Source: Candidatus Aenigmatarchaeota archaeon (lineage in GTDB: Archaea; Aenigmatarchaeota; Aenigmatarchaeia; QMZS01). Taken from it: 26,937 bases of DNA. The first letter of the stretch is position 1. Each line of letters starts with the position of its first letter. Shown here piece after piece: positions 136-26,476 of the stretch. The position numbers and the translations under genes are program-made. The stretch lies in contig JAFGCN010000023.1 of assembly GCA_016932615.1 (NCBI GenBank), positions 1-26,937 of the forward strand, given 5' to 3'. The notes under the pieces were generated by a model. That model made no database searches and was not told the DNA's origin. It saw only the letters and a list, made by a program, of their open reading frames with translations.

Positions 136-1806
136 ATGGAGGAGATACGCTGGCCGCAAAACTCTGGAACTTATGGTATTGGGGATGTTTCGAGCCCGGT
201 TGTGGTCATCTGCCCCGTCCAGGACAAAAATATCCAGGAACATGCCGTAAACGCCGGGGCAGCCGCGGCTGGGCCCTGCCTTACCCCCCGGGGAGTTGAG
301 CTTTTGATAACAAACACAATCTCGAACCCGAATATCCGTTATATAATCCTTGCAGGGAGGGACTCCGGGCATTTTACGGCGGACCTCATAGAAAACGTCA
401 GCTTAAACGGGGTTGACGCAAGCAAAAAGGTAATCGGGACGGTCTGCCCCTCTTTTCCGTACCTTCCAAACCTCCCGCCCGATGCGATAGAGCGGTTCAG
501 GCGCCAGGTTGAGGTGATAAATCTCATTGGCATCTTTGACCCCACCCTGATAACTCTTGTGGTCCGGCTTTGCCTCCAGCCGCCGGAAAACGCACATTCC
601 CTTTCGTATGACCGGGTGCAGAAGTCTCTTATGGACTACGTCGAGACGCCTAAGCTTTCAGCCCATATACTCTTCGATTCAGGCAGGTACGAGGAAGAGC
701 CGCTGATTGTGCCTTTTTCGATACTCGACATGCAGTCGATTCCGTATGAAGCATACTCTACTGTCGGGGCGACCATTTATTCCTCCACTCTCAGCGAGGC
801 GCACAAAGTGTCTCTTGACTTTCTCAGGAGGTCTGGAGTGTGGGTCAGGCGGGAGGGGGGAGTCATGTCTCTTGAAACCCTCTCGACCACAATCCTCCTT
901 GAAAATCTCGAAAGCGGTCTTTACCCGAAGGGCTACAGGCCTGTCGAGTCGGTAAAGACCGATGAGCAGCTCCGGCAGTTTCTTAAGGTTTACAGGTTTT
1001 GGAACTATCTTGTCCCATGGAGCACTGTTGCTTATGACCCTAAGCAGGAGCGTTTTTTCCCAGCTCTTGCCGAAGACAGGGACGTTTGCGAGTCTTATGG
1101 AAGCAGGGTCGCTGCCAAGGGAATAGAGGGCTGCAGCGAGGAGGAGAGAAATGAGATTGTGCAGCTTGTAAAAGCGTTCCAGGAAGAGCATTCTGACAAA
1201 ATCCCGTCCTTTCATGACCTTCTTGAGTTTTACGAGGAGCTTGAGGCCGTGCAGAGAGACACGTTCAACCAGATTCTGGCGGTTTCCGATGCCTGCTCGA
1301 TGGTCATTTCAGATGAGCTTACGGGCGCCCGGAGGCAGTACCTGCAGCTTCAGCTTTCAGATGACCTAAGGTCGGTTGACCCCAGAAAGATGCACACACC
1401 TTCCTTTGCGACATTTGTTCCCTATTTTAGAAAGGCCTATTACAAGGAGTATAATCAGGATGGGCTCATGAGGCGGGTTCTTGTGGCTTCAAACTCCCTT
1501 TCGGAAAAAGACGGCGCGGTAATTTCGGGAGCGGGCATTGGCAAAAAGGAAACTCTGAAATATGGCTGGTTATTTACTCCGATGGCTCACTTTCGCTCGG
1601 ACGACTGGTTTGGCTTTCCGGCAAGCGTTCACGGTGCGATGGCGCTTGCAAGGTTCATACTCTGGAGAGTCGACAGGACTGCGGGCAGGAGAGTGCCTCT
1701 TGGCTTTTATTCGCACCACATGTCTTCCTTTGGCCTGCCGGACTACGCGCTTGACAAGAGTGTTGTCGAGAATTTTTCGAGGTTTTTTCCAAAAATTGCT
1801 CCCTGA
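136..1806 (+). CDS. MtrA-like corrinoid domain fused to thymidylate-synthase-like domain
   Basis: The N-terminal ~150 residues read like subunit A of tetrahydromethanopterin S-methyltransferase (MtrA): a WP near the start, then SPVVVI, AGAAAAGPC, SNPNIRYIILAG and PNLPPDAIERF. His79 in RDSGHFTAD sits where MtrA has the histidine that binds cobalt of its corrinoid. The C-terminal membrane helix of true MtrA is absent. Instead ~400 residues follow, and the last ~80 resemble thymidylate synthase around its nucleotide-binding region (FRSDDWFGFPASVHGAM, then FYSHHMSSF, compared with RSxDxFLGxPFNIA and YSNH). I do not see the PCH catalytic cysteine, so thymidylate synthesis is doubtful. The start at 136 has GGAGG six bases upstream and leaves the usual short MtrA lead before WP. 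The same frame is open to the left window edge, so a longer N-terminus cannot be excluded. A one-carbon or corrinoid role is inferred. Confidence 0.72.
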   Translation: MEEIRWPQNSGTYGIGDVSSPVVVICPVQDKNIQEHAVNAGAAAAGPCLTPRGVELLITNTISNPNIRYIILAGRDSGHFTADLIENVSLNGVDASKKVIGTVCPSFPYLPNLPPDAIERFRRQVEVINLIGIFDPTLITLVVRLCLQPPENAHSLSYDRVQKSLMDYVETPKLSAHILFDSGRYEEEPLIVPFSILDMQSIPYEAYSTVGATIYSSTLSEAHKVSLDFLRRSGVWVRREGGVMSLETLSTTILLENLESGLYPKGYRPVESVKTDEQLRQFLKVYRFWNYLVPWSTVAYDPKQERFFPALAEDRDVCESYGSRVAAKGIEGCSEEERNEIVQLVKAFQEEHSDKIPSFHDLLEFYEELEAVQRDTFNQILAVSDACSMVISDELTGARRQYLQLQLSDDLRSVDPRKMHTPSFATFVPYFRKAYYKEYNQDGLMRRVLVASNSLSEKDGAVISGAGIGKKETLKYGWLFTPMAHFRSDDWFGFPASVHGAMALARFILWRVDRTAGRRVPLGFYSHHMSSFGLPDYALDKSVVENFSRFFPKIAP

Positions 1807-5246: not shown

Positions 5247-8200
5247 ATGGAGGAGCCACTGTTCAACCCGAGAACCGTAAAGCGGCTAGTTTCAGATATC
5301 AAGATTTCGGCCAAGCAGAAAAGGGCAGCTGAAGACTGGCTTAATCTGCTTAAAGAAGGAAAACTTGAAAAAGAGAAACAAGGTTATTTCCCATTCGCAA
5401 ACATCCTTCTAAGAGACCTTTTGGGGTACGATATAAGCCTTGAGAGCCTAAAACACGAGGACAAGCACATGGAGTTCTCGTTCGAGGACAAAACAGGGTC
5501 AAAATTCGTGTGCTTTGAGGCGAAGGGCACGAAAACCGAAGATTTATGGGCATCTCAGCACCGAAACGAAAAAGTAAAAGAGACGCCCGTCAATCAAGTC
5601 AATCATTATATCTACGAATTAGGGATTCCGTATGGAGTTCTGACAAATTACAAGATATTTGTGCTTTTTGACAGAAGTGTGGGGAGTTCAAAATTCCACA
5701 AGTTCGATTTCTGCTCAATTCGGGAAAATCCGGAAAAACTGAAGGAATTCGTGGCTATCTTTTCAAGGGAGAGCTTAGAAGGCGGCTTTGTCGAAAAGCT
5801 GTCCGAGGCGTCAAAAGTCGAGGAGCGGAATTTCACAAAGGAGTTTTACAAGCTGTTCCACGAAACCCGCCTGATGATGCTCAAGGAATTCCGTGAGAAC
5901 GGCATTTCAAGGGAGGACGCGCTCCATTATGCCCAGCTTTATCTGAATCGCCTGATGTTTACATTCTTTGCTGAGGACACAGACAAGCTTTCCGAGCGGC
6001 TTTTCGAGAAAATGGTGACAGACGCCCTCAAAATGGAAACTTTGCTCTCCGACAGGTCAAACTACGTTTCCGCCACGATTTCTGACCTGTTCGGGCGGAT
6101 GAATGAAGGTTCGGAAACGCCCGTAAAAATCCAGCAATTCAACGGCGGCCTGTTCAAAGAAGAAATCCCTCAAACGGTGTACTTTAAGGACTTTAGGGAT
6201 TCAAAGTTTTTCGCCGAGGTTTACAAAAATTCCACGCTCAAAAAGGAGCCGGAACTCGACGAGGCGACAAAGCCGATTTTCACCAAGTACCAGAATAAGC
6301 TTAGCCCAATCATCAAAAACCTGCTTCTTATGGCGTCCTTTGACTTCAAGACCGAAGTAAACGTAAATATCCTGGGCCACATATTCGAGCAGTCGCTTTC
6401 GGATTTGGAGGAGCTTAAGGAAGGAAGCGAAGTGTCGAAACGCAAGAAAGACGGTATTTTTTACACGCCGGAGTACATTACAGACTACATCTGCCGGAAT
6501 ACGATTATTCCGTATTTGTCCAAAAAAGAGGCGAAAACCGCCAAAGAGTTGGTCAAAGAGTATTCTTCAGACATTTCCGAGCTTGAGGAGAAATTCCGGC
6601 GGATAAAGATTTTAGACCCCGCCTGCGGCTCAGGGGCGTTTTTGATAAAGGCGGTCGATGTCCTGCTTGAAATTCAAAAGGAAATCCAGAACTTCAAGCA
6701 GGAAAAGGGAGAATATTTTGCGACAGGCGCCACCGGCTCGCTTGGCTCGGGAAAACGGCTCAGCGCAAAAGACAAGCAGATGTCCCTTATCGGAGAAAGC
6801 TCAAAATGGGTCGAGGAAGACGAGGCAAGGGAAATAATCCAGAACAACATTTTCGGCGTTGACATAAACGAGGAATCGGTCGAGATAACAAAGCTCAGCT
6901 TATTCCTGAAGATTGCCAAGAAGAACAAGAAGCTGATAAGCTTGGACAAAAACATAAAGTGCGGAAATTCTTTGATTGACGACAAATCGGTTGACCCGAA
7001 GGCGTTCAAGTGGGAAGAGGAGTTTTCGGAGATTATGTCAAAAGGCGGTTTTGATGTGGTGATTGGGAATCCTCCTTATGTCAATATTGCCAACATTAGT
7101 GATGAAAATACCAGAACATTCTACCAAACTCATTATGCAACTGTTAAGAACAAGAGTGATCTGTATAGTATATTTACCGAAAAAGGAAAGAATCTTTTGA
7201 AGAAAGAGGGATTATTGAGTTTTATATTCTCAAACTCTTGGTTAGGCACAGATAGTTTCAGCAAATTTAGAGAGTTTCTTGTAAATGAAACAGAAGTATT
7301 ACGATTAATAAAACTGCCTCCAGGAGTTTTTGAAGATGCAATAGTTACAACAACCATACTTACCTTCCAGAATAAAATTCCCCCTAACAATCACAAAATA
7401 GAGCTTTTGGAATATGATAATGGAAAATTCGACAAAATGAATCATGACTTAGCATATGAAAGAATAAAAAGAACTCAGAATTTGACATTTTCTTTCGAGC
7501 CGGAAACTATATTTCATACAAAGACCGTAAGACTAGGAGAAATTGCGAATTTTTCTTTAGGAATAAAAACAAGTGATGACGAAAGATTTATTTTGGAAGC
7601 TAAAAAAGATAATGATACTTACCCTGTACTTAGAGGAAAAGACATTGATAGATATTATTCCGGCAAATCTAAAAAATGGATTTGGTACAAACCAAAACTT
7701 ATGATGGAGAAAGTAGGGGCGGGCCCAAGAAAAATAGAATATTTCAAAGTTCCATCAAAAATACTTTTTCAGGGAATATGTGGGGGGAGTATCAAAGCAA
7801 GCATTGATACCGAGAAACATCTTACAAACGACAAAATACATATCCTCTATTATCTGGAGAAGAATTACCGGGTATCCTATATTCTAGCTTTAGTAAACTC
7901 TAAATTTATTGATGCGTGGTTGAACTCCAATTTCAATAAACTTCTTGAAATAAAAATAAACCAGCTTCAACAAATCCCAATCCCAGAAATCCCGCCCTCC
8001 GAGCAAAAGCCATTTATCGAGAAGGCGGATAAAATGCTAAAACTTAACAAAGAATTTTACGAGAAGAGGGCGAAATTCCTCGACAGGGTCGCCCAAAACC
8101 TCAAAGTCGAGAAAAGCTCGAAAAGGGTCGAAAACTTCCACGAACTCGCCTTTTCGGACTTTTTGGCGGAGCTTGCCAAAAAGAAGGTCAAACTAACGCT

Positions 8201-8366
8201 AAAAGAGCAGGACGAGTGGTCGGAATATTTCGAGGGCTACAAAAAGGATTTGACCGGATTAAAGCAGGAAATAGAGAAGACAGACCGGGAAATTGACCAG
8301 ATGGTTTACAAGCTCTATGGCTTGACCGAAGAAGAGATTAAGATTGTTGAGAGGAGTTTGAAGTAA
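5247..8366 (+). CDS. Type IIG restriction-modification enzyme (Eco57I-like, endonuclease and adenine methyltransferase in one chain)
   Basis: One 1039-residue protein holds every part of a type IIG system. An N-terminal nuclease-like region has a candidate E-x-K pair at Glu91-Lys93 (CFEAKGT), preceded by GYFPFANILLRDLLGYD. A helical linker runs to about residue 440. The N6-adenine methyltransferase core has motif I DPACGSG at 457-463 and motif IV NPPY at 608-611. The C-terminal part resembles TaqI-type target recognition (LGEIANFSLGIKTSDD, YPVLRGKDIDRYY, INQLQQIPIP) and ends in a charged helical tail. Expected role: cut and methylate one strand-specific DNA site. It stands alone, with no separate restriction, modification or specificity gene. 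The DNA for residues ~612-911 is clearly AT-richer than the rest, suggesting exchange of the recognition part. The recognition sequence cannot be read from here. Confidence 0.88.
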   Translation: MEEPLFNPRTVKRLVSDIKISAKQKRAAEDWLNLLKEGKLEKEKQGYFPFANILLRDLLGYDISLESLKHEDKHMEFSFEDKTGSKFVCFEAKGTKTEDLWASQHRNEKVKETPVNQVNHYIYELGIPYGVLTNYKIFVLFDRSVGSSKFHKFDFCSIRENPEKLKEFVAIFSRESLEGGFVEKLSEASKVEERNFTKEFYKLFHETRLMMLKEFRENGISREDALHYAQLYLNRLMFTFFAEDTDKLSERLFEKMVTDALKMETLLSDRSNYVSATISDLFGRMNEGSETPVKIQQFNGGLFKEEIPQTVYFKDFRDSKFFAEVYKNSTLKKEPELDEATKPIFTKYQNKLSPIIKNLLLMASFDFKTEVNVNILGHIFEQSLSDLEELKEGSEVSKRKKDGIFYTPEYITDYICRNTIIPYLSKKEAKTAKELVKEYSSDISELEEKFRRIKILDPACGSGAFLIKAVDVLLEIQKEIQNFKQEKGEYFATGATGSLGSGKRLSAKDKQMSLIGESSKWVEEDEAREIIQNNIFGVDINEESVEITKLSLFLKIAKKNKKLISLDKNIKCGNSLIDDKSVDPKAFKWEEEFSEIMSKGGFDVVIGNPPYVNIANISDENTRTFYQTHYATVKNKSDLYSIFTEKGKNLLKKEGLLSFIFSNSWLGTDSFSKFREFLVNETEVLRLIKLPPGVFEDAIVTTTILTFQNKIPPNNHKIELLEYDNGKFDKMNHDLAYERIKRTQNLTFSFEPETIFHTKTVRLGEIANFSLGIKTSDDERFILEAKKDNDTYPVLRGKDIDRYYSGKSKKWIWYKPKLMMEKVGAGPRKIEYFKVPSKILFQGICGGSIKASIDTEKHLTNDKIHILYYLEKNYRVSYILALVNSKFIDAWLNSNFNKLLEIKINQLQQIPIPEIPPSEQKPFIEKADKMLKLNKEFYEKRAKFLDRVAQNLKVEKSSKRVENFHELAFSDFLAELAKKKVKLTLKEQDEWSEYFEGYKKDLTGLKQEIEKTDREIDQMVYKLYGLTEEEIKIVERSLK

Positions 8367-13225: not shown

Positions 13226-14647
13226 TCAGTAGCTCATTGTTTCTGCAGAGTCCCATTTCTGGTAGCTTTTCTGCAGGAAAGAGTGCCCCAGCGGGAAGAG
13301 GAGGGCGCTAAGCAGGAGCAGATACTGGCTGAAAAGCGGAAGGAATATCAGCGTGACAAGAATCGGGCAGGTGAGAAGGGAGTAGGACAAAAAGACCTTT
13401 GCGTTATACAGGAGTATGTTTGGCTGGAGCCCTGCAACCCTGATTGTGACAGATAGCGAGTAAAAAGAAGTGGCAAGGAAAACGAGGGTGGCGAGGGGCA
13501 GGTAACTGGAGTATCCGAGAATGGCGCCTGCAAGCCAAAGGACAATGATGCAAAGCAGGTCGAGCACCATGAAGCCGCGCACCTTGCTTTTTATGAGGTC
13601 TGACTGCTTAAGCGGGAAAAACCCGTATGATGTGAAAAGGTCAAACTCAGTCAGCCAGTTGTAAATGGTCGAGGAGATTGCCCCGAAAAAAACTGCGAAA
13701 ATGTAGAGGAAATTTATCCCTGGCATAAAGCCGGTAAGGGTTTGAAGGATTGCCCATACCAGCCCAAGGGGAATCAGGAGGGAAAATACGAGCTTTGCAA
13801 TCCCGCCTTCGCTTCGGCGCATGTCAAGGAAGTCTTTTGCTATGAGGTGCGAATACTGCCCAAAAGGCATAATCTTCGTCAGGGGAGAGAGGGAATTGTT
13901 GAATCGCCTTCTTTTGTCGGGGTAGTCGACTTTCAGGAAATTTATCGAAACTGCCGAAAGCAGGATTATTGCGGCAAGAGTTACCAGGACCTTCTGGGGC
14001 GAAGGCGAATAAAATATCGAGAGGGGAGTAAACAGCTCGAGCGGGCTTGTGCTGTATCTGATAAGGAGTGCTGCCAGCCCCAAAATTCCGGCAAGAACTG
14101 CGAGAAGGGCCTTTCTGGAATGCACGTAGACCGTCGAGAGAAAGAAAACCACCGAAAGCCCCAAGAGAAACGAGAGGGTGGCGGTCAGGAGAAGAAGCCC
14201 GACATGGTACGAGCTTATTCCAAGGAGAGGGGAAGCAATAGCAAGGCCGAGAATCGGGGGAAGAACCCAGAGGAAGAAGTAGAAGATTATGTCTTTGACA
14301 AAGAAGTTTGCAAATATTTCCTTTTCAGAAAGGGGGAGGGTTCTTGAAGAATACGTAATCATGCTCGCCTGCCCGAACCTTCGGTTCATAATCTCTCGCC
14401 CGAAGAGGCCGAAAGACCCGACGCTGACCCCGAAAAGAAGGTATATCAGGTGAAACACGCTTATCATCCTGCCAAGGGAATATATGGCCTGGAGGGCAGG
14501 AAGCATAAGCGAACCCAGGAAGGAAAAAGCCGCAAGCATTACGGGAAAAAGCGCGAAGTTAATCCCCCCGAACATCTTCGAGTGGACTCTCCATTCTTCC
14601 TTAACCATTGCCTTCAGGACAACAAGAGCCATCTTATCCACCGACAA
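13226..14647 (-). CDS. ABC-2 type transporter permease (473 aa)
   Basis: A strongly hydrophobic protein with about a dozen membrane segments in two sets, separated by a hydrophilic loop near residues 245-275 (DYPDKRRRFNNSLSPL) that would lie in the cytoplasm. Its start overlaps the end of the ATPase gene by 14 bases, which implies translational coupling and one transporter. The arrangement fits an ABC exporter or membrane-stress transporter, but I recognise no substrate-specific family. The 70-base gap to the convergent M16 gene holds nothing else recognised. Confidence 0.78.
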   Translation of the reverse strand: MSVDKMALVVLKAMVKEEWRVHSKMFGGINFALFPVMLAAFSFLGSLMLPALQAIYSLGRMISVFHLIYLLFGVSVGSFGLFGREIMNRRFGQASMITYSSRTLPLSEKEIFANFFVKDIIFYFFLWVLPPILGLAIASPLLGISSYHVGLLLLTATLSFLLGLSVVFFLSTVYVHSRKALLAVLAGILGLAALLIRYSTSPLELFTPLSIFYSPSPQKVLVTLAAIILLSAVSINFLKVDYPDKRRRFNNSLSPLTKIMPFGQYSHLIAKDFLDMRRSEGGIAKLVFSLLIPLGLVWAILQTLTGFMPGINFLYIFAVFFGAISSTIYNWLTEFDLFTSYGFFPLKQSDLIKSKVRGFMVLDLLCIIVLWLAGAILGYSSYLPLATLVFLATSFYSLSVTIRVAGLQPNILLYNAKVFLSYSLLTCPILVTLIFLPLFSQYLLLLSALLFPLGHSFLQKSYQKWDSAETMSY

Positions 14648-15353
14648 GCTCCAAAAAGAAGGATTCGAGCCGCTTTCTTTTTTTCAGCAGGGGGTTCATC
14701 TTTCCCTGGTAAATGAGCTTTCCCTGGTCGAGGACTCCAATGCTGGTGCATATCTCTTCGGCAATCTCAAGCACGTGAGTCGAGAAGAATACTGTTCCGC
14801 CACGGAGCGTGTATTGGCGGAGGTAATCCTTTACTTTTTTCTGGATAACCGGGTCGAGATTTATGAGGGGCTCGTCGATAAAGACCATTTCGGGCTCGTG
14901 CATGAAGCACTGGGCGAACATGAGCTTCTGCCTTGTCCCCCTTGAGAGGTCCTTGCAAAGAACCGTTCTCTGGTCCTGGAACCGAAGGCGCTTAAACCAC
15001 TCGTCGCACCTTTCCTTTATTTTCTTCTTCTCCATTCTTCTTATAGAGCCGGCAAAGTGGAGGTATTCTTCTGCCGTGAGAAATGAGGGGGGGTTTTCCT
15101 GCTCAGGCATAACCCCTATGGCGGCCCTTACGCCGATAGGGTCTTTAAGGACGTCGAGGCCCAGAACACTTGCCTTTCCTCTTGTGGGCTTTATCTGCCC
15201 GGTAAGCATCTTTATCATGGTAGTCTTTCCTGAGCCGTTTGCCCCCAAAAGCCCGAAGAGTTCGCCCTTTGAAACCGAAAAGGTCGTGTTGTTTACCGCG
15301 GCAAGGGGGCCAAACTTTTTGGTCAGCCCCCGCGCCTCAATTACGGCTTTCAT
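14634..15353 (-). CDS. ABC transporter ATP-binding protein
   Basis: Walker A is GANGSGKTT (about residues 35-43), the Q-loop is in GVMPEQENPP, Walker B is MVFIDEP and the switch histidine is in FFSTHVLE. The signature motif is LSRGTRQK rather than LSGGQ, as seen in several ABC-2 exporter ATPases. At 239 residues it is a single nucleotide-binding domain. It powers the overlapping permease. A TATA-like ACTATATTC lies about 25-30 bases upstream. The TrmB-type regulator ending 46 bases upstream, on the same strand, could control it. Confidence 0.93.
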   Translation of the reverse strand: MKAVIEARGLTKKFGPLAAVNNTTFSVSKGELFGLLGANGSGKTTMIKMLTGQIKPTRGKASVLGLDVLKDPIGVRAAIGVMPEQENPPSFLTAEEYLHFAGSIRRMEKKKIKERCDEWFKRLRFQDQRTVLCKDLSRGTRQKLMFAQCFMHEPEMVFIDEPLINLDPVIQKKVKDYLRQYTLRGGTVFFSTHVLEIAEEICTSIGVLDQGKLIYQGKMNPLLKKRKRLESFFLELVGG

Positions 15354-15399: not shown

Positions 15400-16110
15400 C
15401 TAATCTTTTTTAGAAGCATCCCACATAATCTCAAAGTAGCTCTGATAGGTGTCTGCAAGCTCTTTGCTCTTTATCCTTATGGAAAGAAAAGGGTCTGAGC
15501 AGATTATGATGCCAACCCTATCTCCGTAGATTATCGTTGTTGCCCGGTAAGAGTATTTTTCAGGCAAAAATCTCATTGTCGTGGTCTTTGATTTTATTAT
15601 ATCAGGCCTTTTCTTTATCAGCTCCCTTTCGTGGATATTTTCCCTTTCAAGCGCCTTCATGAAGTGTGTCAGGAAGAAATCGATCTTTTTGCTCCTTACG
15701 TCTTCGGAAATAATGCAGTAGTCTTTCTTTTTTTCAAGAATCTCATCCACCATTGCTTTCATTCCTTTCGTTCCCCTGAAAATTTCGACCGCTGGCTCTT
15801 GCTTTTCCTTTAATTGGGACATTTTTTTTAGCTTTGGAAGAATCTCCATCAGGGCCGCTTCTTTTTCCTTAAGCTGATGAAGCATCCTTTCCGGATCAGA
15901 CGCCTTGAACTTCTTGGCCTTGTTTTCGGTAACGAAGGATGCAAGGCCTTTTTCAACAAGCGACTCAAGAATCCGGTAAGTTTGTGTTCTCTCTATTTTT
16001 GTCTTTCTTGAAACCCCAAGGACCGAGGACTCTCCAATCATGAGAAGCGCAAGATACACTTTTGCTTCTTTTTTGTCCAGCCCAAGCCGTTCCAAAACTG
16101 CATCTTCCAT
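15400..16110 (-). CDS. TrmB-family transcriptional regulator (fourth, divergent paralog)
   Basis: An N-terminal winged helix (LGLDKKEAKVYLALLMIGES, then KTKIERTQTYRILESLVEKG at about residues 30-50) is followed by a ~150-residue TrmB-type effector domain with EIFRGTKGMKAMVDEIL, RFLPEKYSY, IIYGDRVGIII and the C-terminal AxxYQSYFEIMWDAS. Effectors of TrmB proteins are often sugars, but none can be named here. The ATG at 16110 is chosen because homologs start just before this helix; a frame further upstream adds 32 unlike residues across the promoter. The recognition helix (ERTQTYR) differs from KATVYD of the three paralogs at 18.6-25.8 kb. The start is followed on its upstream side by TATATAAATA at 16123-16132. 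Position suggests control of the ABC transporter, the operon at 16200, or both. Confidence 0.87.
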   Translation of the reverse strand: MEDAVLERLGLDKKEAKVYLALLMIGESSVLGVSRKTKIERTQTYRILESLVEKGLASFVTENKAKKFKASDPERMLHQLKEKEAALMEILPKLKKMSQLKEKQEPAVEIFRGTKGMKAMVDEILEKKKDYCIISEDVRSKKIDFFLTHFMKALERENIHERELIKKRPDIIKSKTTTMRFLPEKYSYRATTIIYGDRVGIIICSDPFLSIRIKSKELADTYQSYFEIMWDASKKD

Positions 16111-16199
16111 AATAGTAGAGGGTATATAAATACTTGATGTGTAATTTGCACAACAAGGAAACAAATAGATAAGGATACTACTATGTTTAGGTGAGAAAA

Positions 16200-17405
16200 A
16201 TGGCATGGAAAGAAGTTGAGACTACCCTTGCAGCAAGGGATTATCCCTGTAGAGCAGACAAACTGTTTTGGGAGCTTTCAGGCGATGTCTATGCCAGAAA
16301 AGTGGACAATGTATCTGTGGCTAGTGGCGACAACTCTATGAAACTAAAGTCCTACGCCAGAGATGGAGTGGATGCAAATGTGGAACTGGCTCTGGGAAAA
16401 GGCCGATTTGATGATATTTGCTCAATACTTCCGCACGTTATTTCTTCAACAGGGAACCGTAAGGAGAAGGCTTATTCCCTTGATGTGGGCTTGAATCTGG
16501 GAAGATTTGCCGAAGGTGAAGGCGGGCTTAAAGTACCGTACTTGGAGCATGTGGTCTATAGTCCGGAAGAATCGGGCAAAAGTTCCAAGGGATATGACCC
16601 TAAGAACTTCTTGGTGTCGCTGGTGTTTCCGGAAAATATTCGAAGGAAACTTGAGCATTACGGGGATTGTTCTGCCATGGATAAGGATTTGCCGGAAGCC
16701 GAGCTTGCGTTGCTTATTGGAGAGGCTGCCCTGAAAGACGGCTTCGAAAGATCTGAGAAGGTCTATAAGTGCGTAACTCCCGTATGCCCGCCTCCAATGA
16801 GAATGGACTATAATGAGCTGCTGGACTTCATAAGAAAAAGCCCCAGTTTAAAACTGGAGGGCAGATATGTTGAGAACACAAAGGGTGGAAAAAAGGAGTC
16901 GGTTTTGGCAGATATTACCCCCAGCCATCTTTCCCTGGAGTGTCTTTTGATAGACCGGTATAATACAAAGCTTAGCCGCGATAAGCTGATAACGCCCATA
17001 TTGGAATCCACTGAAGTTGAGTTCAGCCCCAGCGCTGCAATTGGGCTTAATGAAAGATACGAAGGTTTTTTTGAAACCTTGGGCAAGGGCTTTGCCAAGA
17101 ATGTGCGGGCTTTGGGCAAAAGAAAATTCCTTGCTGGTAAGCGCACTTCAGTAAGAGACTCCCGTGGAGCCATGAGGGAACTGGGATCCATTCCTTTATC
17201 TGCCGGCTATAAGTTGCTGGATGAACCTTTGGGCCTCAGTGAGAGAAAAGAGCAAGCCAAGAGAGAAGCAGAGCTCAAGGACTTCTTTGAACGCACTCTC
17301 TCCAAAGGCGGGGTCAAAAGGCCGGATGGAAGCACCTGCCTGGCGGTAATGGACAAGAAGTGCCTTACGGATAAGTTTGATGAAAAGAGGAAAGAGGGTG
17401 TTTGA
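16200..17405 (+). CDS. Uncharacterised protein, first gene of a three-gene operon (401 aa)
   Basis: I recognise no family. The protein starts AWKEVETTLAARDYPCRADK, is mostly soluble, and has a Lys/Glu-rich C-terminus (LSERKEQAKREAELKDFFER) likely to be helical. Scattered cysteines, including VCPPP and TCL, make no clear metal motif. The ATG at 16200 has TTAGGTGA at 16187-16194; a GTG at 16191 lies inside that ribosome site and is unlikely to be the start. It is divergent from the TrmB-type gene at 15400-16110, with 89 bases between. Its stop codon TGA is part of the ribosome site of the next gene. The function is unknown, as for its two partners. Confidence 0.75.
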   Translation: MAWKEVETTLAARDYPCRADKLFWELSGDVYARKVDNVSVASGDNSMKLKSYARDGVDANVELALGKGRFDDICSILPHVISSTGNRKEKAYSLDVGLNLGRFAEGEGGLKVPYLEHVVYSPEESGKSSKGYDPKNFLVSLVFPENIRRKLEHYGDCSAMDKDLPEAELALLIGEAALKDGFERSEKVYKCVTPVCPPPMRMDYNELLDFIRKSPSLKLEGRYVENTKGGKKESVLADITPSHLSLECLLIDRYNTKLSRDKLITPILESTEVEFSPSAAIGLNERYEGFFETLGKGFAKNVRALGKRKFLAGKRTSVRDSRGAMRELGSIPLSAGYKLLDEPLGLSERKEQAKREAELKDFFERTLSKGGVKRPDGSTCLAVMDKKCLTDKFDEKRKEGV

Positions 17406-17416
17406 GGTGACTGAAA

Positions 17417-17794
17417 ATGGGACTAAAGCAAACGAAGATATTGGGCAGGCCTTACCCTGATGAGCAAATGCTCGTGTATGAGGGCCCGGAAGTCTTTCAG
17501 GTTGGAAATCTCCTCTATAAAGAGCTATTTGCCCATGGGAGAATATTCTCAGACGTGGGCAAGAAGCGATTCATACAGCGCTCACTTAACTACCGGGAAC
17601 TGAAAAAAAGGACGGGTCTAGAGGAATCTCGTCTTAAGGCCGCTCTTGTTAATCTCCTTGAGCAGAATTGCGTGCAGTTACTTGATGGGAGGTATATCAT
17701 GAATCTGGGTGGTGCGTCAGCTCTCGAGGAATATGTGGCAGAGTGCGAGGTGCAAGGCGTAAGTCTGCCCCTGGCAAAGGGGGGCTTGAGGTGA
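17417..17794 (+). CDS. Small winged-helix-like protein in the unknown operon (125 aa)
   Basis: The middle of the protein reads as a helix-turn-helix with a wing: LNYRELKKRTGLEESRLKAAL followed by LLEQNCVQLLDGRYIM at about residues 55-95. The N-terminus (ILGRPYPDEQMLVYEGPEVF) is not recognised. GAGGTGA at 17404-17410, overlapping the stop of the previous gene, serves as ribosome site. It may bind DNA, or act as a scaffold in a complex, as small winged helices can. No specific family named. Confidence 0.7.
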   Translation: MGLKQTKILGRPYPDEQMLVYEGPEVFQVGNLLYKELFAHGRIFSDVGKKRFIQRSLNYRELKKRTGLEESRLKAALVNLLEQNCVQLLDGRYIMNLGGASALEEYVAECEVQGVSLPLAKGGLR

Positions 17795-17800
17795 CGGAAA

Positions 17801-18463
17801 ATGGCAAAAGTATATAGAGGTTCTGGCTTAAAGTTAGATAGTCCCTTGCTGAGAGAGTTATACGAACAAAAAGACAGGGATGAAATGAGGCCCCATGGGT
17901 GGGAGATTGATGGCTATTTTAGTAAGGCAATCCGCAGTGTGCATCGGGAGATAAATGAGTTCAAACATGGAACTAACGGTGAAATCCTGAAAGAAAGGAA
18001 AAGGCTGGCAATAGCGGCGGGAAAGGCATTCGATAGCCCTAAAGACCTGCATTGTAAGGGTTGCGGGGGGGAGGTTTCAGCAGCTAGGGATAAGAGCTAC
18101 ACCCTGCCTATAGTCAGGTACTATTGTGCTCCATGCAGTGAATGGTCTCGTAGGTTCATGCTTAACCGTTCCCTTGAAGACTTGAGGGACTGGAGAAACA
18201 ATCCCCGGGGCACTATCGAAGAAGATATAAAGAAGGGTACTAATTGGAGGAAAATTAACGTAGAATCTGACAGAAAAGACCTTGAGGATTATCTGGAAGC
18301 TTCAAAAAAACAGAAGTATTACGTCCATATGGAAGATGTTGGATATAAGTGCCCTCACTTCGATTGCGGTTTGGTTATAGGGGGCGAACCAATTCCTTAT
18401 ACTACTGAGGACGAGAAGAAAAAGAGAATTTATGTCTGCGGCGTTTGCGAAAGAGAAATCTGA
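17801..18463 (+). CDS. Double zinc-ribbon protein, last gene of the unknown operon (220 aa)
   Basis: Two treble-clef or ribbon-like sites are visible. Site one uses Cys85-x2-Cys88 (HCKGCGG) and Cys109-x2-Cys112 (YYCAPCSEW). Site two uses Cys184-x4-Cys189 (KCPHFDCG) and Cys213-x2-Cys216 (VCGVCERE) at the very C-terminus. Between them lies an Arg/Trp-rich helical stretch. The N-terminal 80 residues are charged and helical. GAGGTGA at 17788-17794 contains the previous gene's stop codon. Zinc ribbons often bind nucleic acid or protein partners. No known family is recognised. Confidence 0.74.
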   Translation: MAKVYRGSGLKLDSPLLRELYEQKDRDEMRPHGWEIDGYFSKAIRSVHREINEFKHGTNGEILKERKRLAIAAGKAFDSPKDLHCKGCGGEVSAARDKSYTLPIVRYYCAPCSEWSRRFMLNRSLEDLRDWRNNPRGTIEEDIKKGTNWRKINVESDRKDLEDYLEASKKQKYYVHMEDVGYKCPHFDCGLVIGGEPIPYTTEDEKKKRIYVCGVCEREI

Positions 18464-18501: not shown

Positions 18502-18554
18502 TTGCCAGAGTATCAGGTTGAGCCGGTCGCCATAAGTGATAAATGCTGCTGGGG
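18502..18554 (-). pseudogene. Relic of a TrmB-type regulator gene (53 bp)
   Basis: These 53 bases match 18717-18769, inside the neighbouring regulator gene, at 49 positions in the same direction. On the minus strand they encode PAAFITYGDRLNLILWQ, the conserved core of the effector domain, and all four differences are third-position synonymous changes. Homology stops sharply on both sides, and no start, helix-turn-helix or remaining domain is present. The 148-base gap 18464-18611 holds nothing else that I recognise. Confidence 0.7.
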
Positions 18555-18611: not shown

Positions 18612-19358
18612 CTAATCTTCAGGGCTTGTTTTTGAAGCATTCCAGATTATGTCAAAATAGGAGCGAAACGCCTTGGCAAAGCAGGGGTCTTTTATGCTTA
18701 TCACCAGGGGGTCCGATTGCCAGAGTATCAGGTTGAGCCGGTCGCCGTAGGTGATGAATGCTGCCGGGGAATTGTTCTTTTCGGGGTAATATCTTGCCTC
18801 TATAGTTGGGCAAAACGCCTTTACTTTCTCTACTTCTTCTTTAGCTTCTTTTTTGTTTGCAACAATAGTCCTGCCAAGTGGAATGGTGGTCTTCAGGTTT
18901 TTGAGTGGATGCACCAGCCGATGCCCCATTATGCCCATCATCTGCATCGAAGCCCCCAGCGCCAGAACCGGCTTTCCTGCTTTTGCCATATCCAGGAACA
19001 TGGACTTTACTGCGGCTTTTCCTTCAAGGACTTTTATCTCCCTTTCCGCTTTGTTAGAGGAATAGTATTTTTCAAGCGTTGGGTAAATTTCCATTATCGC
19101 GTTCATTTTGCCTTCCAGTATCTCAATCAGGCACTTGGGGTCGACGGGAGAATAATAATTTCGCCCTTCCCGGTTTACATGTGAAGCAAGGCCTTTTCTT
19201 TCAAGAACTGACAGCAGGTCATAAACCGTTGCCTTGTGGACCTTTAGCTTTGAAACCAGGGCGGGAGCGGTTGTTTCCCCGGTTTTTAGGAGAAGGTGGT
19301 ATAGCTTTGACTCAAGGTCAGTCAGTCCAAATTCCCTTAATGCTACTTCAACCTCCAT
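18612..19358 (-). CDS. TrmB-family transcriptional regulator (cassette 1)
   Basis: The N-terminal winged helix includes LTDLESKLYHLLLKTGETTA and the recognition helix KVHKATVYDLLSVLERKGL (about residues 37-60). It is followed by a TrmB-type effector domain with EIKVLEGKAAVKSMF, ALGASMQMMGIMGHR, FITYGDRLNLIL and AFRSYFDIIWNAS at the C-terminus. It is a close paralog of the regulators at 23742-24476 and 25105-25839. It is divergent from the S-component gene at 19434, so it is probably a repressor of the S-component, radical SAM and ECF operon. The MEVEVALREFG start is shared in style with its paralogs (MEP...). Its own promoter is unclear: the TATA-like element nearby fits the rightward gene better. 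Confidence 0.88.
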   Translation of the reverse strand: MEVEVALREFGLTDLESKLYHLLLKTGETTAPALVSKLKVHKATVYDLLSVLERKGLASHVNREGRNYYSPVDPKCLIEILEGKMNAIMEIYPTLEKYYSSNKAEREIKVLEGKAAVKSMFLDMAKAGKPVLALGASMQMMGIMGHRLVHPLKNLKTTIPLGRTIVANKKEAKEEVEKVKAFCPTIEARYYPEKNNSPAAFITYGDRLNLILWQSDPLVISIKDPCFAKAFRSYFDIIWNASKTSPED

Positions 19359-19365
19359 AATATGG

Positions 19366-19402
19366 TATATAAATACTTAGGTAGTAGGATTTGCGACGAC
19401 GA
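19366..19402. promoter_or_regulatory. Promoter and operator-like dyad of cassette 1
   Basis: TATATAAATA (19366-19375) suits a rightward start near 19396. An 18-base block at 19369-19386 (ATAAATACTTAGGTAGTA) is nearly the same as blocks at 24483-24500 and 25848-25865. A dyad follows: AGGTAGTA, eight bases, then GACGACGA at 19395-19402, with core GTAGT and ACGAC. The dyad lies between the TATA box and the inferred start, as expected for a repressor site. Confidence 0.5.
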
Positions 19403-19433
19403 AATTAAACAGCAGGAAAATGCAATCACGAGT

Positions 19434-20006
19434 ATGGGACAAAAAACATTAGTTGGAGGATTTAGCACAAAGGAGCTTACTGTGTGCGCCCTTTTTGGAG
19501 CGCTGCTCTTTTTCCTGGTTTTCCTTTTGGGGGCAGGGGTGGTGACTGTAACGGGGATCCCTGTTTCAGGTGGGCTTGCAAACATGATGGTGGCTCTTCT
19601 GGTGCTTACTATTGGAAAGAGGATTGTCGATAGATTTGGCTCTGCTGCGCTGATATGTGTGGTGTCAGGAATACTTGCAATACCGACCATCAGCTGGGGC
19701 CCTCCAGGTGTTTACAAGGTATTCCTTCTCTTGGCTATAGGGCTTGCCTATGACATTCCCTATCATTTGCAGAGGCAGAACCGGTGGAGAGAATTTATAG
19801 CAGGCGGCACGGTAGGGGTTATTGCTGCGCCAACAATGTACTTGTTTCTCTCTGTCCTGGGCCTTCCTGGAGCGGACAAGCTGGCGCCTTTAGTGGCAGT
19901 TTTCATGGTCGTCTACGCAGTCCTTGCCTCGGCTGGCGCGCATTTTGGAAAATGGATATATGAAACCAAGCTAAAGAACCGGGCTTTTTTGAGGGCGCTT
20001 AGCTAG
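19434..20006 (+). CDS. ECF transporter S-component-like membrane protein (cassette 1, 190 aa)
   Basis: A hydrophobic protein with about six membrane segments and family-like marks: KELTVCALFGALLFF at the N-terminus, TGIPVSGGLANMM, PTISWGPPGVYK in a loop, LGLPGADKL and the C-terminal KWIYETKLKNRAFLRA. These correspond one-to-one with the proteins at 24548 and 25913. The start is set at 19434 (MGQKTLVGGF) because the paralogs start there; the frame continues 72 bases upstream into the operator. As an S component it would bind a small molecule and pair with EcfT and the ATPase downstream. Substrate unknown; no match in my memory to a characterised vitamin S component. Confidence 0.72.
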   Translation: MGQKTLVGGFSTKELTVCALFGALLFFLVFLLGAGVVTVTGIPVSGGLANMMVALLVLTIGKRIVDRFGSAALICVVSGILAIPTISWGPPGVYKVFLLLAIGLAYDIPYHLQRQNRWREFIAGGTVGVIAAPTMYLFLSVLGLPGADKLAPLVAVFMVVYAVLASAGAHFGKWIYETKLKNRAFLRALS

Positions 20007-23741: not shown

Positions 23742-24476
23742 TTAGGATCTGGATACGAGCCAAATCATCTCGAAGAATTTCCTGAAAGCGTCAGCGAACC
23801 TCTGGTCCCGGATGATGACTACAAGCGGCTCGTCTGAGCAGGTCAGAAGGGTTAGCCGGTCTCCGTATGTAGCAAAGGACACGGTGGAGAAATATTCTTC
23901 GGGGTAGAACCTTACCTTTGCGATTGGAAATATCTGGCTCAGCCCTGATGCAAGCTCTCTTACGTCAGACTTGTCCACGAAAATCGCCTTGGCAGAGATA
24001 CCTTCTTTTTTGAACTTGTTTAGAAACTGCATCGCCCGGTGCTTCATCACAGGAATCATCTGGAGCGCGCTTCCGACAGTATATAGCTCACCTCCAACTT
24101 CGCAGACATCACTGAAATATGCTTTCAGCCCCTCCATCCCATCGATTACCCGAACCTCCCTCTTTGGGCTTTTTGAGGTATGCATTTTTTCGAGGAGGGG
24201 AAAGACAGATTCAAAGCAGCTTTTTTTCTCTTCAAGCATCTCGAAAAACTTCTTTGGGCTTTCAGGGGAATAGACCTCCCTGCCACGCCGTTTCATGTGC
24301 GTTACGAGCCCTTTTCTTTCAAGATTGGAGAGGGCATTGTAAACCGTTGCCTTGTAGAATTTTATCCGCTTTACTATTTCCGGGGCGGTAGATTCGCCGA
24401 ACCTTAGCAAATCCAGGTATATTTTGCTCTCTGCATCTGTAAGGTCAAACTTCTTTAGCACACTTCCCGGCTCCAT
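23742..24476 (-). CDS. TrmB-family transcriptional regulator (cassette 2)
   Basis: The winged helix has LTDAESKIYLDLLRFGESTA and recognition helix KFYKATVYNALSNLERKGL (about residues 38-58). The effector domain carries EVRVIDGMEGLKAYFSD, TVGSALQMIPVMKHRAM, FATYGDRLTLL and AFRKFFEMIWLVS. It is paralogous to the regulators of cassettes 1 and 3 and, like them, divergent from an S-component gene. The recognition helix differs from the others mainly by Asn in place of Asp after KATVY. Its probable target is the S component at 24548. The convergent neighbour on its 3' side is ecfT. Confidence 0.88.
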   Translation of the reverse strand: MEPGSVLKKFDLTDAESKIYLDLLRFGESTAPEIVKRIKFYKATVYNALSNLERKGLVTHMKRRGREVYSPESPKKFFEMLEEKKSCFESVFPLLEKMHTSKSPKREVRVIDGMEGLKAYFSDVCEVGGELYTVGSALQMIPVMKHRAMQFLNKFKKEGISAKAIFVDKSDVRELASGLSQIFPIAKVRFYPEEYFSTVSFATYGDRLTLLTCSDEPLVVIIRDQRFADAFRKFFEMIWLVSRS

Positions 24477-24547: not shown

Positions 24548-25108
24548 ATGGTTGGAAAATTGGCTACCCGGGACTTAGCGGTTTGCGCTCTCTTTGGAGC
24601 TCTGGTGTTTGCCGGTGCCTACCTGCTTGGAACAGGCATTATCGCGCTTACAGGCATACCTGCTACGGGGTCCCTCCTGAATATGGCTTATTCGCTGATG
24701 GTCATAATCGTTGGAATAAAGGCGGTAAACAAGTTTGGGGCGGCAACGCTCATTCTTCTTGTGGAAAGTGCCCTTGCAATTCCCACGACTATATTTGGCC
24801 CTCCTGGCATGTACAAGCTGGCAATTGCGCTTTTAGTGGCTCTTCCGCTTGACTTTCTTCTGGAAGCTTCGAAAAGGAGCAATATCTCGCTTTACTTTGC
24901 AGGGGCAGCCGGTGCTGCATTGAACACCTTGCTTGTCTGGGCTTTCCTGAGCTTTCTTGGGCTTCCTGGTGCAGAGCAGTTGGGTGCTGTTTTGCTCCCA
25001 CTTGCTGCTGCAAGTGCTATCCTGGGGCTTGTAGGCGCGTATATAGGGGTCTGGCTTTTTGACAATAAGCTGAAGAAGCGGGCTTTTATAAGGCAAATGG
25101 GTGGCTAA
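24548..25108 (+). CDS. ECF transporter S-component-like membrane protein (cassette 2, 186 aa)
   Basis: Same family as the proteins at 19434 and 25913: RDLAVCALFGALVFAG, TGIPATGSLLNM, PTTIFGPPGMYK, LGLPGAEQLGA and the C-terminal VWLFDNKLKKRAFIRQ. About six membrane segments. No motor genes follow; the gene ends by overlapping the convergent regulator of cassette 3 by a few bases, so it must borrow the fused ATPase and EcfT if it is an active transporter. The ATG follows GAGGT directly, a poorly spaced ribosome site. Confidence 0.72.
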   Translation: MVGKLATRDLAVCALFGALVFAGAYLLGTGIIALTGIPATGSLLNMAYSLMVIIVGIKAVNKFGAATLILLVESALAIPTTIFGPPGMYKLAIALLVALPLDFLLEASKRSNISLYFAGAAGAALNTLLVWAFLSFLGLPGAEQLGAVLLPLAAASAILGLVGAYIGVWLFDNKLKKRAFIRQMGG

Positions 25109-25839
25109 TCTTTGGCCAAAGACCACAGCATCCTAAAATATCCCCTAAAGGCGTTTGCAATAGCGGCGTCTTCAATCATAATCACTACAATCTCGTCTTC
25201 CCAGATATTCAGGGCAAGCTTGTCACCATAAATATTGAACGCAACCGGAGAGTTGAATTCGGGAGGGTAATATTTGATTTCTATATTTGGTATCATCCGC
25301 TTTACCTCTTCTGCGCCCTTTCTTACTTCTGGCTTGTCGACTAGCAGGGTTTTTGGGTGAAGCGATTTTTTGTTGAAGCTCTTAATCTGCTGAATAGACC
25401 GGTGTCGCATAACGGAAAAAACCTGAAGGGAGCTTCCAAAAGATAGTATTTCTTTTTCTTCAGTTGCCATGTCGTTCATCATTGACCGAAATCCATCTTT
25501 TCCCACCAGGACACTGATTTCTCTTTGCGGTTTATTTGTAGAGTAGTATCCTTTTAAAATGGGGTGGACCTGCTGCAGGGCATCCATTTTTTCCTTTAGA
25601 AGTTCAGTTAGCTTATCCGGGTTTAGGGAATAGTATACCCGGTGATTTTTCTTTTGCACATGGGCAACCAGGCCCTTTCTTTCAAGGGCAGAGAGGATGT
25701 CATAAACGGTTGCCTTATAGAGCTTTAGCTGGCTTATCAGGGCAGTTGCAGTTGTCTCTCCGCTTTTCAAAAGGCTAAGGTAGACCTTTGACTCAAGATC
25801 AGTAAGCCCGAATTCCCGAAGCGCTTCCTGCGGTTCCAT
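25105..25839 (-). CDS. TrmB-family transcriptional regulator (cassette 3)
   Basis: The winged helix has LTDLESKVYLSLLKSGETTA and recognition helix KLYKATVYDILSALERKGL (about residues 38-58). The effector domain shows EISVLVGKDGFRSMMND, SFGSSLQVFSVMRHRSIQ, FNIYGDKLAL (Lys where the paralogs have Arg) and AFRGYFRMLWSLAKD. Closely paralogous to cassettes 1 and 2 and divergent from the S-component gene at 25913. Its 3' end overlaps that of the cassette 2 S-component gene. Probably a ligand-responsive repressor or activator of cassette 3; the ligand is unknown. Confidence 0.88.
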   Translation of the reverse strand: MEPQEALREFGLTDLESKVYLSLLKSGETTATALISQLKLYKATVYDILSALERKGLVAHVQKKNHRVYYSLNPDKLTELLKEKMDALQQVHPILKGYYSTNKPQREISVLVGKDGFRSMMNDMATEEKEILSFGSSLQVFSVMRHRSIQQIKSFNKKSLHPKTLLVDKPEVRKGAEEVKRMIPNIEIKYYPPEFNSPVAFNIYGDKLALNIWEDEIVVIMIEDAAIANAFRGYFRMLWSLAKD

Positions 25840-25912: not shown

Positions 25913-26476
25913 ATGGTAGGAACATTTACGACAAAGGAGTTAGCAATATGCGCTCTCTTTGGAAGCATGGTTTTCGTAGTAGGGTATGTTCTGGGAACAA
26001 TTGTCATCTCCATGACGGGAATTCCCTTTACTGGCGGGATTCTAAACATCCTTGTGGCGGCGATAATATTTTTCAGTGGAATCCGGCTGCTTAACGAAAA
26101 GTTTGGGGTAGGGGCACTGATGTTTACGATAGTTTCGATAATTGCTATTCCTACGACGATTGTGGGGCCTCCTGGCGTGGCTAAGGTGGCGGTTGGCTTT
26201 TTGTCCGGGCTTGTATTTGACCTTGTGCTTCGTGTGGCCCCGAAATCAAAGTATCGTTTTGCGCTTTCCAGTAGTTTGGGAGTTTTGGCGTCATTTTTCT
26301 TAAGTCTCTGTTTGATGCTCTACATACTTCACCTTCCTTCTGCAGAGCAGCTTTTGTCTATGGCATATGTGTTAGTTCCATTATATGCTGTCCTGGGCGC
26401 ACTAGGTGGACACTTGGGCTCATGGCTCTATGAATCCAAGTTGAAAACCAGGGCTTTTTTCAGGGCGATTAAGTAG
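25913..26476 (+). CDS. ECF transporter S-component-like membrane protein (cassette 3, 187 aa)
   Basis: Third family member: KELAICALFGSMVFVVG, TGIPFTGGILNIL, AIPTTIVGPPGVAK, LHLPSAEQLLS and SWLYESKLKTRAFFRAIK at the C-terminus. About six membrane segments. GGAGG three bases before the ATG is a clear ribosome site, so the message has a leader that contains the operator dyad region. No motor genes follow; the next gene begins nine bases downstream of the stop and is probably in the same transcript. Confidence 0.73.
   Translation: MVGTFTTKELAICALFGSMVFVVGYVLGTIVISMTGIPFTGGILNILVAAIIFFSGIRLLNEKFGVGALMFTIVSIIAIPTTIVGPPGVAKVAVGFLSGLVFDLVLRVAPKSKYRFALSSSLGVLASFFLSLCLMLYILHLPSAEQLLSMAYVLVPLYAVLGALGGHLGSWLYESKLKTRAFFRAIK

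What the first reader, a model, noticed from the sequence alone, without database searches (positions are those of the whole stretch)
16200..18463. Three-gene operon of unrecognised proteins with winged-helix and double zinc-ribbon partners
Three tightly packed genes, each opened by a GGTGA-type ribosome site (the two internal junctions place the stop codon inside GAGGTGA), encode a 401-residue unknown, a small winged-helix-like protein and a protein with two four-cysteine sites. None matches a family known to me. The set could be a nucleic-acid-handling complex or a lineage-specific defence or mobile-element module.
Basis: partly seen in the sequence, partly recalled or inferred. Interest (0 to 1): 0.6.

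Follow-up and report, generated by a model that had tools for sequence, protein, structure and literature searches.

The report
Orphan three-gene operon in an archaeon
Three tightly packed archaeal genes really are there and match nothing in the databases; relatives of the largest turn up in only a few related archaea, without the other two genes, at sites where close relatives have no gene, and they change fast, so this looks like an optional gene cassette of unknown job rather than a core cellular machine.

Summary
Genes A (16200-17405, 401 aa), B (17417-17794, 125 aa) and C (17801-18463, 220 aa) lie on one strand with gaps of 11 and 6 nt. Each has a GGTGA ribosome site, and none matches a known family (Pfam, NCBIfam, PHROGs, PADLOC, PDB sequences). 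The idea of a conserved three-protein complex is not supported. A profile finds relatives of A in 7 other genomes of the 156 searched in its phylum, all without B or C, which were found nowhere else. A defines a small, undescribed family. Its short copies lie between rps10 and the thermosome gene in some genomes of one genus, and that interval is empty in two of their sisters. They evolve fast (dN/dS 0.38-0.65, thermosome 0.06), exchange halves by recombination, and one is broken. Best reading: an accessory cassette divergent from a TrmB-like regulator, in which A is the effector, B probably an HTH regulator and C a zinc-ribbon nucleic-acid or polymerase binder, perhaps for genetic conflict. 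Accessory status is well supported; the biochemical role is inference (about 0.3). No structure could be obtained: both single-sequence models failed (pLDDT 35 and 32).

The parts
16110..16199 (.). Intergenic region between the divergent TrmB-like regulator gene and gene A; holds TATA-like TATATAAATA (16117-16126) and the GGTGA ribosome site of A
   Evidence: sequence; promoter resemblance to another genome's TrmB locus did not stand out from background
16200..17405 (+). Gene A, 401 aa, full-length member of an undescribed protein family; Cx4C (191, 196) and Cx7C (380, 388)
   Evidence: family by profile search in 8 of 156 phylum genomes, alignments
17417..17794 (+). Gene B, 125 aa, probable helix-turn-helix/winged-helix protein, no detectable relatives
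   Evidence: weak HTH matches; no homologue
17801..18463 (+). Gene C, 220 aa, two four-cysteine zinc-ribbon-like sites, no detectable relatives; first ribbon weakly DksA/TraR-like
   Evidence: phrog_54 DksA-like E=0.003, TraR C4 E=0.88; no homologue
15400..16110 (-). Divergent TrmB-family transcription regulator, candidate local regulator of the trio (start at ATG 16110, not 16206)
   Evidence: Pfam TrmB E=4.4e-16; best relative 46% identical in G039 also has a divergent, unrelated orphan gene
18502..18554 (-). 53-bp, 92% identical duplicate of the 3' part of the next TrmB gene (18717-18769), 39 nt after gene C: trace of a rearrangement at the trio's downstream edge
   Evidence: the repeat finder D1; translation

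Best explanation
The trio is an accessory operon of an archaeon, transcribed from its own promoter divergent from a TrmB-family regulator. Gene A is the core or effector. It belongs to a small undescribed family that comes and goes between related genomes, sits beside small orphan partners that differ from site to site, evolves fast and exchanges parts by recombination. B is most likely an HTH DNA-binding protein that controls the operon or brings A to DNA. C is a double zinc-ribbon protein that most likely binds nucleic acid or RNA polymerase. I think the likeliest role is a conflict-type module (defence, counter-defence or self-maintenance) acting on nucleic acid in the cytosol. Shown: gene order and packing; A family membership, patchiness, an insertion-like site in a sister genus, and speed and mosaicism of the short paralogues. 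Inferred: co-transcription, the roles of B and C, regulation by TrmB, the conflict role. The biochemical activity of A is unknown.
For: Tight packing with ribosome sites. A family in only 8 of 156 phylum genomes, in 4 taxonomic families (five weaker hits were inspected and are other proteins). In one sister genus the rps10-thermosome interval holds A-family genes in three genomes and is empty in two; the same interval holds an IS-like transposase ORF in G146. Partners differ: u140, u243 or a tandem paralogue near the thermosome, u157 near rpl4, B and C here, with no profile relation among them. dN/dS of A-family pairs is 0.38-0.65 against 0.06 for the thermosome of the same genomes. Recombination swapped the 3' half of the short A gene between G153 and G154; the G147 copy is broken. 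Trio codon usage is among the least typical of the window's genes. HTH and zinc-ribbon signals as.
Against: No member matches any PADLOC defence model or PHROG convincingly (best PADLOC hits E=0.002-0.006 on one or two members with unrelated names). G+C of the trio equals its surroundings, so recent foreign origin is not indicated. Speed and mosaicism were measured on short and divergent paralogues in a sister genus, not on this trio, for which no close relative exists. Other orphan genes at the same sites are equally fast, so speed is not specific to A. The recombination tract also covers the thermosome 5' end, so it is ordinary homologous exchange.
Confidence: 0.3

Rival explanations
1. Ordinary lineage-specific regulatory operon: B and C are transcription accessory factors and A a cytosolic partner, controlled by the neighbouring TrmB regulator in response to a metabolite; nothing to do with conflict or mobility.
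For: Divergent TrmB gene, HTH and zinc-ribbon signals, host-like G+C.
Against: A's relatives have no B or C beside them; patchy distribution, empty sites and fast evolution are unlike a stable regulatory machine.
Confidence: 0.25
2. Remnant or cargo of an uncharacterised archaeal virus or plasmid integrated in the chromosome.
For: Orphan genes, variable site in relatives, IS-like ORF at the same interval in one relative, a DksA/TraR-like ribbon (mostly phage and plasmid proteins) as C's best weak match.
Against: No integrase, replication or structural virus gene beside the trio; no match of A or C in phage records or of C in plasmids, none in viral contigs; G+C as host.
Confidence: 0.2
3. A two- or three-gene toxin-antitoxin-like unit: A toxic, B the DNA-binding antitoxin that represses the operon.
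For: Small HTH gene packed behind a larger unknown gene; accessory, decaying and recombining relatives of A.
Against: A's relatives have no B-like partner, and solitary copies persist, which a toxin without its antitoxin would not easily do; no toxin fold or motif found.
Confidence: 0.1
4. Not a functional trio: A is a real gene, but B is a chance ORF or decaying gene and C an unrelated neighbour.
For: B's codon usage is no better than a shifted frame; no homologue of B or C anywhere searched.
Against: B fills the space between A and C exactly, with a matching ribosome site at each junction (D2), and carries a weak HTH signal.
Confidence: 0.1

Closest known systems
TrmB-family regulators with divergent target genes (archaea)
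   Same: A TrmB gene lies head to head with the trio (15400-16110), as TrmB-type regulators often lie beside their targets (established knowledge)
   Different: The trio is not a sugar transporter or enzyme; the nearest TrmB relative (G039, 46%) faces a different orphan gene; a shared operator could not be shown above background
DksA/TraR zinc-finger proteins (PHROG 54)
   Same: First ribbon of C reads CxxCG..V..AR....C..C, like TraR; weak profile match E=0.003
   Different: Spacer of 20 rather than about 17 residues (TraR spacing from memory), a second ribbon at the C-terminus, no curated cut-off reached (TIGR02419 10 bits against 59.7)
RPC82/TFIIE-type and CRISPR-associated winged-helix proteins
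   Same: Residues 54-106 of B read as an HTH followed by a wing-like strand
   Different: All scores below cut-off (HTH_9 13 bits against 23.4; WH_III-A E=0.01); no CRISPR or RNA polymerase genes alongside
Lineage-specific uncharacterised gene families of uncultivated microbes (for example the 404,085 FESNov families, PMC10849945)
   Same: An orphan family without known domain in uncultivated archaea; such families are common
   Different: I could not check whether the A family is in that catalogue; its patchy, mosaic pattern was worked out here

Membership tests
Known anti-phage defence system (PADLOC) | Component proteins match PADLOC models | tested here: not met
   A: none; B: WH_III-A E=0.01 only; C: none; A-family members: best E=0.0024 on one or two members with unrelated names
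Known anti-phage defence system (PADLOC) | Trio protects against viruses | not testable with these tools
   needs an experiment
DksA/TraR family (gene C) | Profile score above the curated cut-off | tested here: not met
   TIGR02419 10.2 bits against 59.7; phrog_54 E=0.003 only
DksA/TraR family (gene C) | CxxC...CxxC zinc finger with an adjacent N-terminal coiled coil | tested here: inconclusive
   cysteines present in the sequence; structure model of no use
Winged-helix DNA-binding protein (gene B) | Significant match to a winged-helix model | tested here: inconclusive
   HTH_9 E=0.07-0.11 below cut-off; WH_III-A E=0.01
Conserved three-gene system | A, B and C kept together in other genomes | tested here: not met
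   A relatives without B or C in all 7 other genomes
Virus or plasmid element | Homologues in virus, phage or plasmid collections, or hallmark genes alongside | tested here: not met
   negative; no integrase or hallmark gene in the flanks; A was not run against plasmids
A family (defined here) | Profile match over the full length with the conserved M-x-W/Y start, mid Cx4C-x2-P and C-terminal SC-x7-C | tested here: met
   G095 keeps one cysteine of each pair; G028 is cut by the contig end

The most novel reading that the evidence does not exclude
The A family is the core of a new kind of modular archaeal conflict system: a fast-evolving, recombining effector that joins interchangeable small partners at variable chromosomal sites, here with a DNA-binding protein and a zinc-ribbon factor that may target RNA polymerase.
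Probability: 0.12. Interest if true: 0.8.

Novelty: new variant of a known kind. Interest (0 to 1): 0.36.

Why it matters
Small archaeal genomes are full of orphan genes whose role is unknown. This one can be tied to a defined family with features of accessory genes: presence or absence at one site among sister genomes, swapped halves, changing partners, fast evolution. If the family proves to be a conflict system it would add a defence or selfish module in a poorly known branch of archaea. If not, it is still a clean example of how such cassettes turn over.

Tried and rejected
(1) Structure: single-sequence AlphaFold2 of A and of a B-C read-through gave mean pLDDT 35 and 32; no fold search was run on them because low-confidence models give meaningless matches. 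(2) The Tannerella match from the single genome-contig scan is a chance 8-residue match inside what reads as an outer-membrane efflux-type protein. (3) Five extra profile hits at E=1e-4 to 0.04 lie in other proteins, such as a reverse-gyrase-like protein, a TnpB-like protein and a kinase or Nudix locus. (4) C's hit in G049 is a frame with five stops. (5) Internal duplication in A: none by profile comparison. (6) Conserved operator between TrmB and A: the alignment with G039 beats dinucleotide shuffles, but unrelated intergenic stretches score as high (68-82 against 64), so I dropped it. (7) Link to the ABC exporter 13226-15353: in relatives the exporter pair stands without the TrmB gene and the trio. 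(8) DUF693, eL27 and similar weak matches to A are below any cut-off. (9) Sigma-70 promoter and terminator scans gave chance numbers. The organism could not be named.

Full report
OBSERVATION. The window holds three + strand genes: A (16200-17405, 401 aa), B (17417-17794, 125 aa) and C (17801-18463, 220 aa), with gaps of 11 and 6 nt. Each has GGTGA a few nt before its ATG, and at both internal junctions the stop codon overlaps TGAGGTGA (repeat D2). Only about 5 of 19 other window genes have such a site; most look leaderless. GGTGA pairs with the 3' end of archaeal 16S rRNA (established knowledge), so this marks ordinary operon-internal translation starts. B and C are in frame with one another, separated by TGA and two codons.

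IDENTITY. None of the three matches Pfam, NCBIfam, PHROGs, PADLOC or PDB sequences significantly. The window is archaeal by content: MtrA, a diphthamide-synthesis protein, TrmB regulators, and thermosome and archaeal ribosomal proteins in family relatives. The genome is 1.26 Mb in 29 contigs. Neighbours are a TrmB gene on the other strand with an ABC exporter pair behind it, and TrmB, radical-SAM and transport-type ABC genes downstream.

A FAMILY. A single-sequence search found two relatives in 156 phylum genomes. Profiles extended this to 8 genomes including our own, and a further round added only hits that on inspection are other proteins. Full-length members: G150 (362 aa), G112 (382 aa), G095 (349 aa) and G028 (336 aa, cut by the contig end). 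Short (210-252 aa) and divergent (about 284 aa) paralogues occur in G150, G153, G154 and G147. Profile comparison confirms that the groups belong together (probability 97-99% to the full-length set). Conserved features are the start M-x-W/Y, P78, P144, C196-x2-P199 and E206. The window, G150 and G112 proteins keep C191, C196, C380 and C388, whereas G095 keeps one cysteine of each pair. No hydrophobic segment or catalytic motif stood out on reading the alignment, and no internal repeat was found.

CONTEXT OF THE FAMILY. In none of the other genomes do B or C accompany A. B and C were not found in the phylum, nor in the seven A-bearing genomes at E up to 5 (the tool notes that an empty answer without a positive control is weak). 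Elsewhere A stands alone (G112, G095, G028), or in tandem with a short copy (G150), or beside other small orphans: u140 and u243 near the thermosome in G153 and G154, u157 near rpl4 in G150 and G154. These partners match no Pfam family and are unrelated to each other, to A, and to B and C by profile comparison.

ACCESSORY CHARACTER. In the sister genus, rps10 and the thermosome gene are divergent neighbours. The interval is empty in G149 and G152, occupied by an IS-like transposase ORF in G146 (a different genus of the same family), and occupied by A-family genes and orphans in G150, G153 and G154. Pairwise dN/dS of A-family genes is 0.38-0.65 against 0.06 for the thermosome of the same genomes; the other orphans at these sites are similar at 0.37-0.52. 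G153 and G154 are identical over two runs of 214 and 281 bp that cover the thermosome 5' end and the 3' half of the short A gene, while the 5' half of A is 80-90% identical. G150 and G147 share the other 3' version. The G147 copy is broken by frame changes. The family therefore behaves as optional, recombining, sometimes decaying genes. For the window's trio itself there is no close relative to compare; its codon usage is among the least typical of the window's genes, its G+C is host-like, and a 53-bp duplicate of the next TrmB gene lies 39 nt after C, a trace of rearrangement.

MECHANISM. A's chemistry is unknown and I do not claim one. B carries a weak HTH signal and is most simply a DNA-binding regulator. 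C carries two four-cysteine sites, the first weakly like DksA/TraR. The divergent TrmB gene is a candidate regulator: its best relative (46%, G039) also faces an orphan gene, but an unrelated one. Promoter similarity between the two loci beat shuffles but not real intergenic background, so it is not used. The likeliest reading is an accessory, possibly conflict-type cassette acting on nucleic acid (0.3). Rivals are a regulatory operon, a virus or plasmid remnant, a toxin-antitoxin unit, and a non-functional grouping. Defence, phage, plasmid and viral-contig searches were negative.

LIMITS. Only one phylum could be searched with profiles. The organism could not be named.

VERDICT. Observation confirmed; interpretation partly supported. 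This is a real orphan operon whose large gene belongs to an undescribed, patchy, fast-evolving archaeal family. The trio as a unit is so far known from one genome.

Noticed in passing
window 5247-8366 (+): Type IIG restriction-modification gene (Eco57I/MmeI-like, TaqI-like specificity domain) with a G+C dip to 34% around 7000-8000, suggesting acquired DNA.
   Followed up: partly
window 18502-18554 and 18717-18769: 53-bp, 92% identical duplication of the 3' end of a TrmB gene directly downstream of gene C.
   Followed up: partly
window 15400-16110, 18612-19358, 23742-24476, 25105-25839 (all -): Four TrmB-family regulator genes in one 27-kb window; three of them (18612-19358, 23742-24476, 25105-25839) stand head to head with similar small predicted membrane proteins (19362-20006, 24548-25108, 25913-26476).
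   Followed up: partly
window 136-1806 (+): MtrA-like domain (methanopterin methyltransferase subunit A family) at the start of a 556-aa protein.
   Followed up: no
L025 5381-7335, L027 5519-7492, L006 763-3142: Variable orphan-gene island between rps10 and the thermosome gene in one archaeal genus, empty in sister genomes, with recombination reaching into the thermosome 5' end.
   Followed up: yes
L028 5175-6519 and L029 5937-7277: Pair of a divergent A-family gene with a 157-aa orphan next to rpl4, kept in two genomes; a 454-aa ATPase-like gene sits beside it in one only.
   Followed up: partly
L101 4822-6157: Nearest relative of the trio's TrmB regulator faces a 184-aa orphan with apparent membrane segments, not the trio.
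   Followed up: partly
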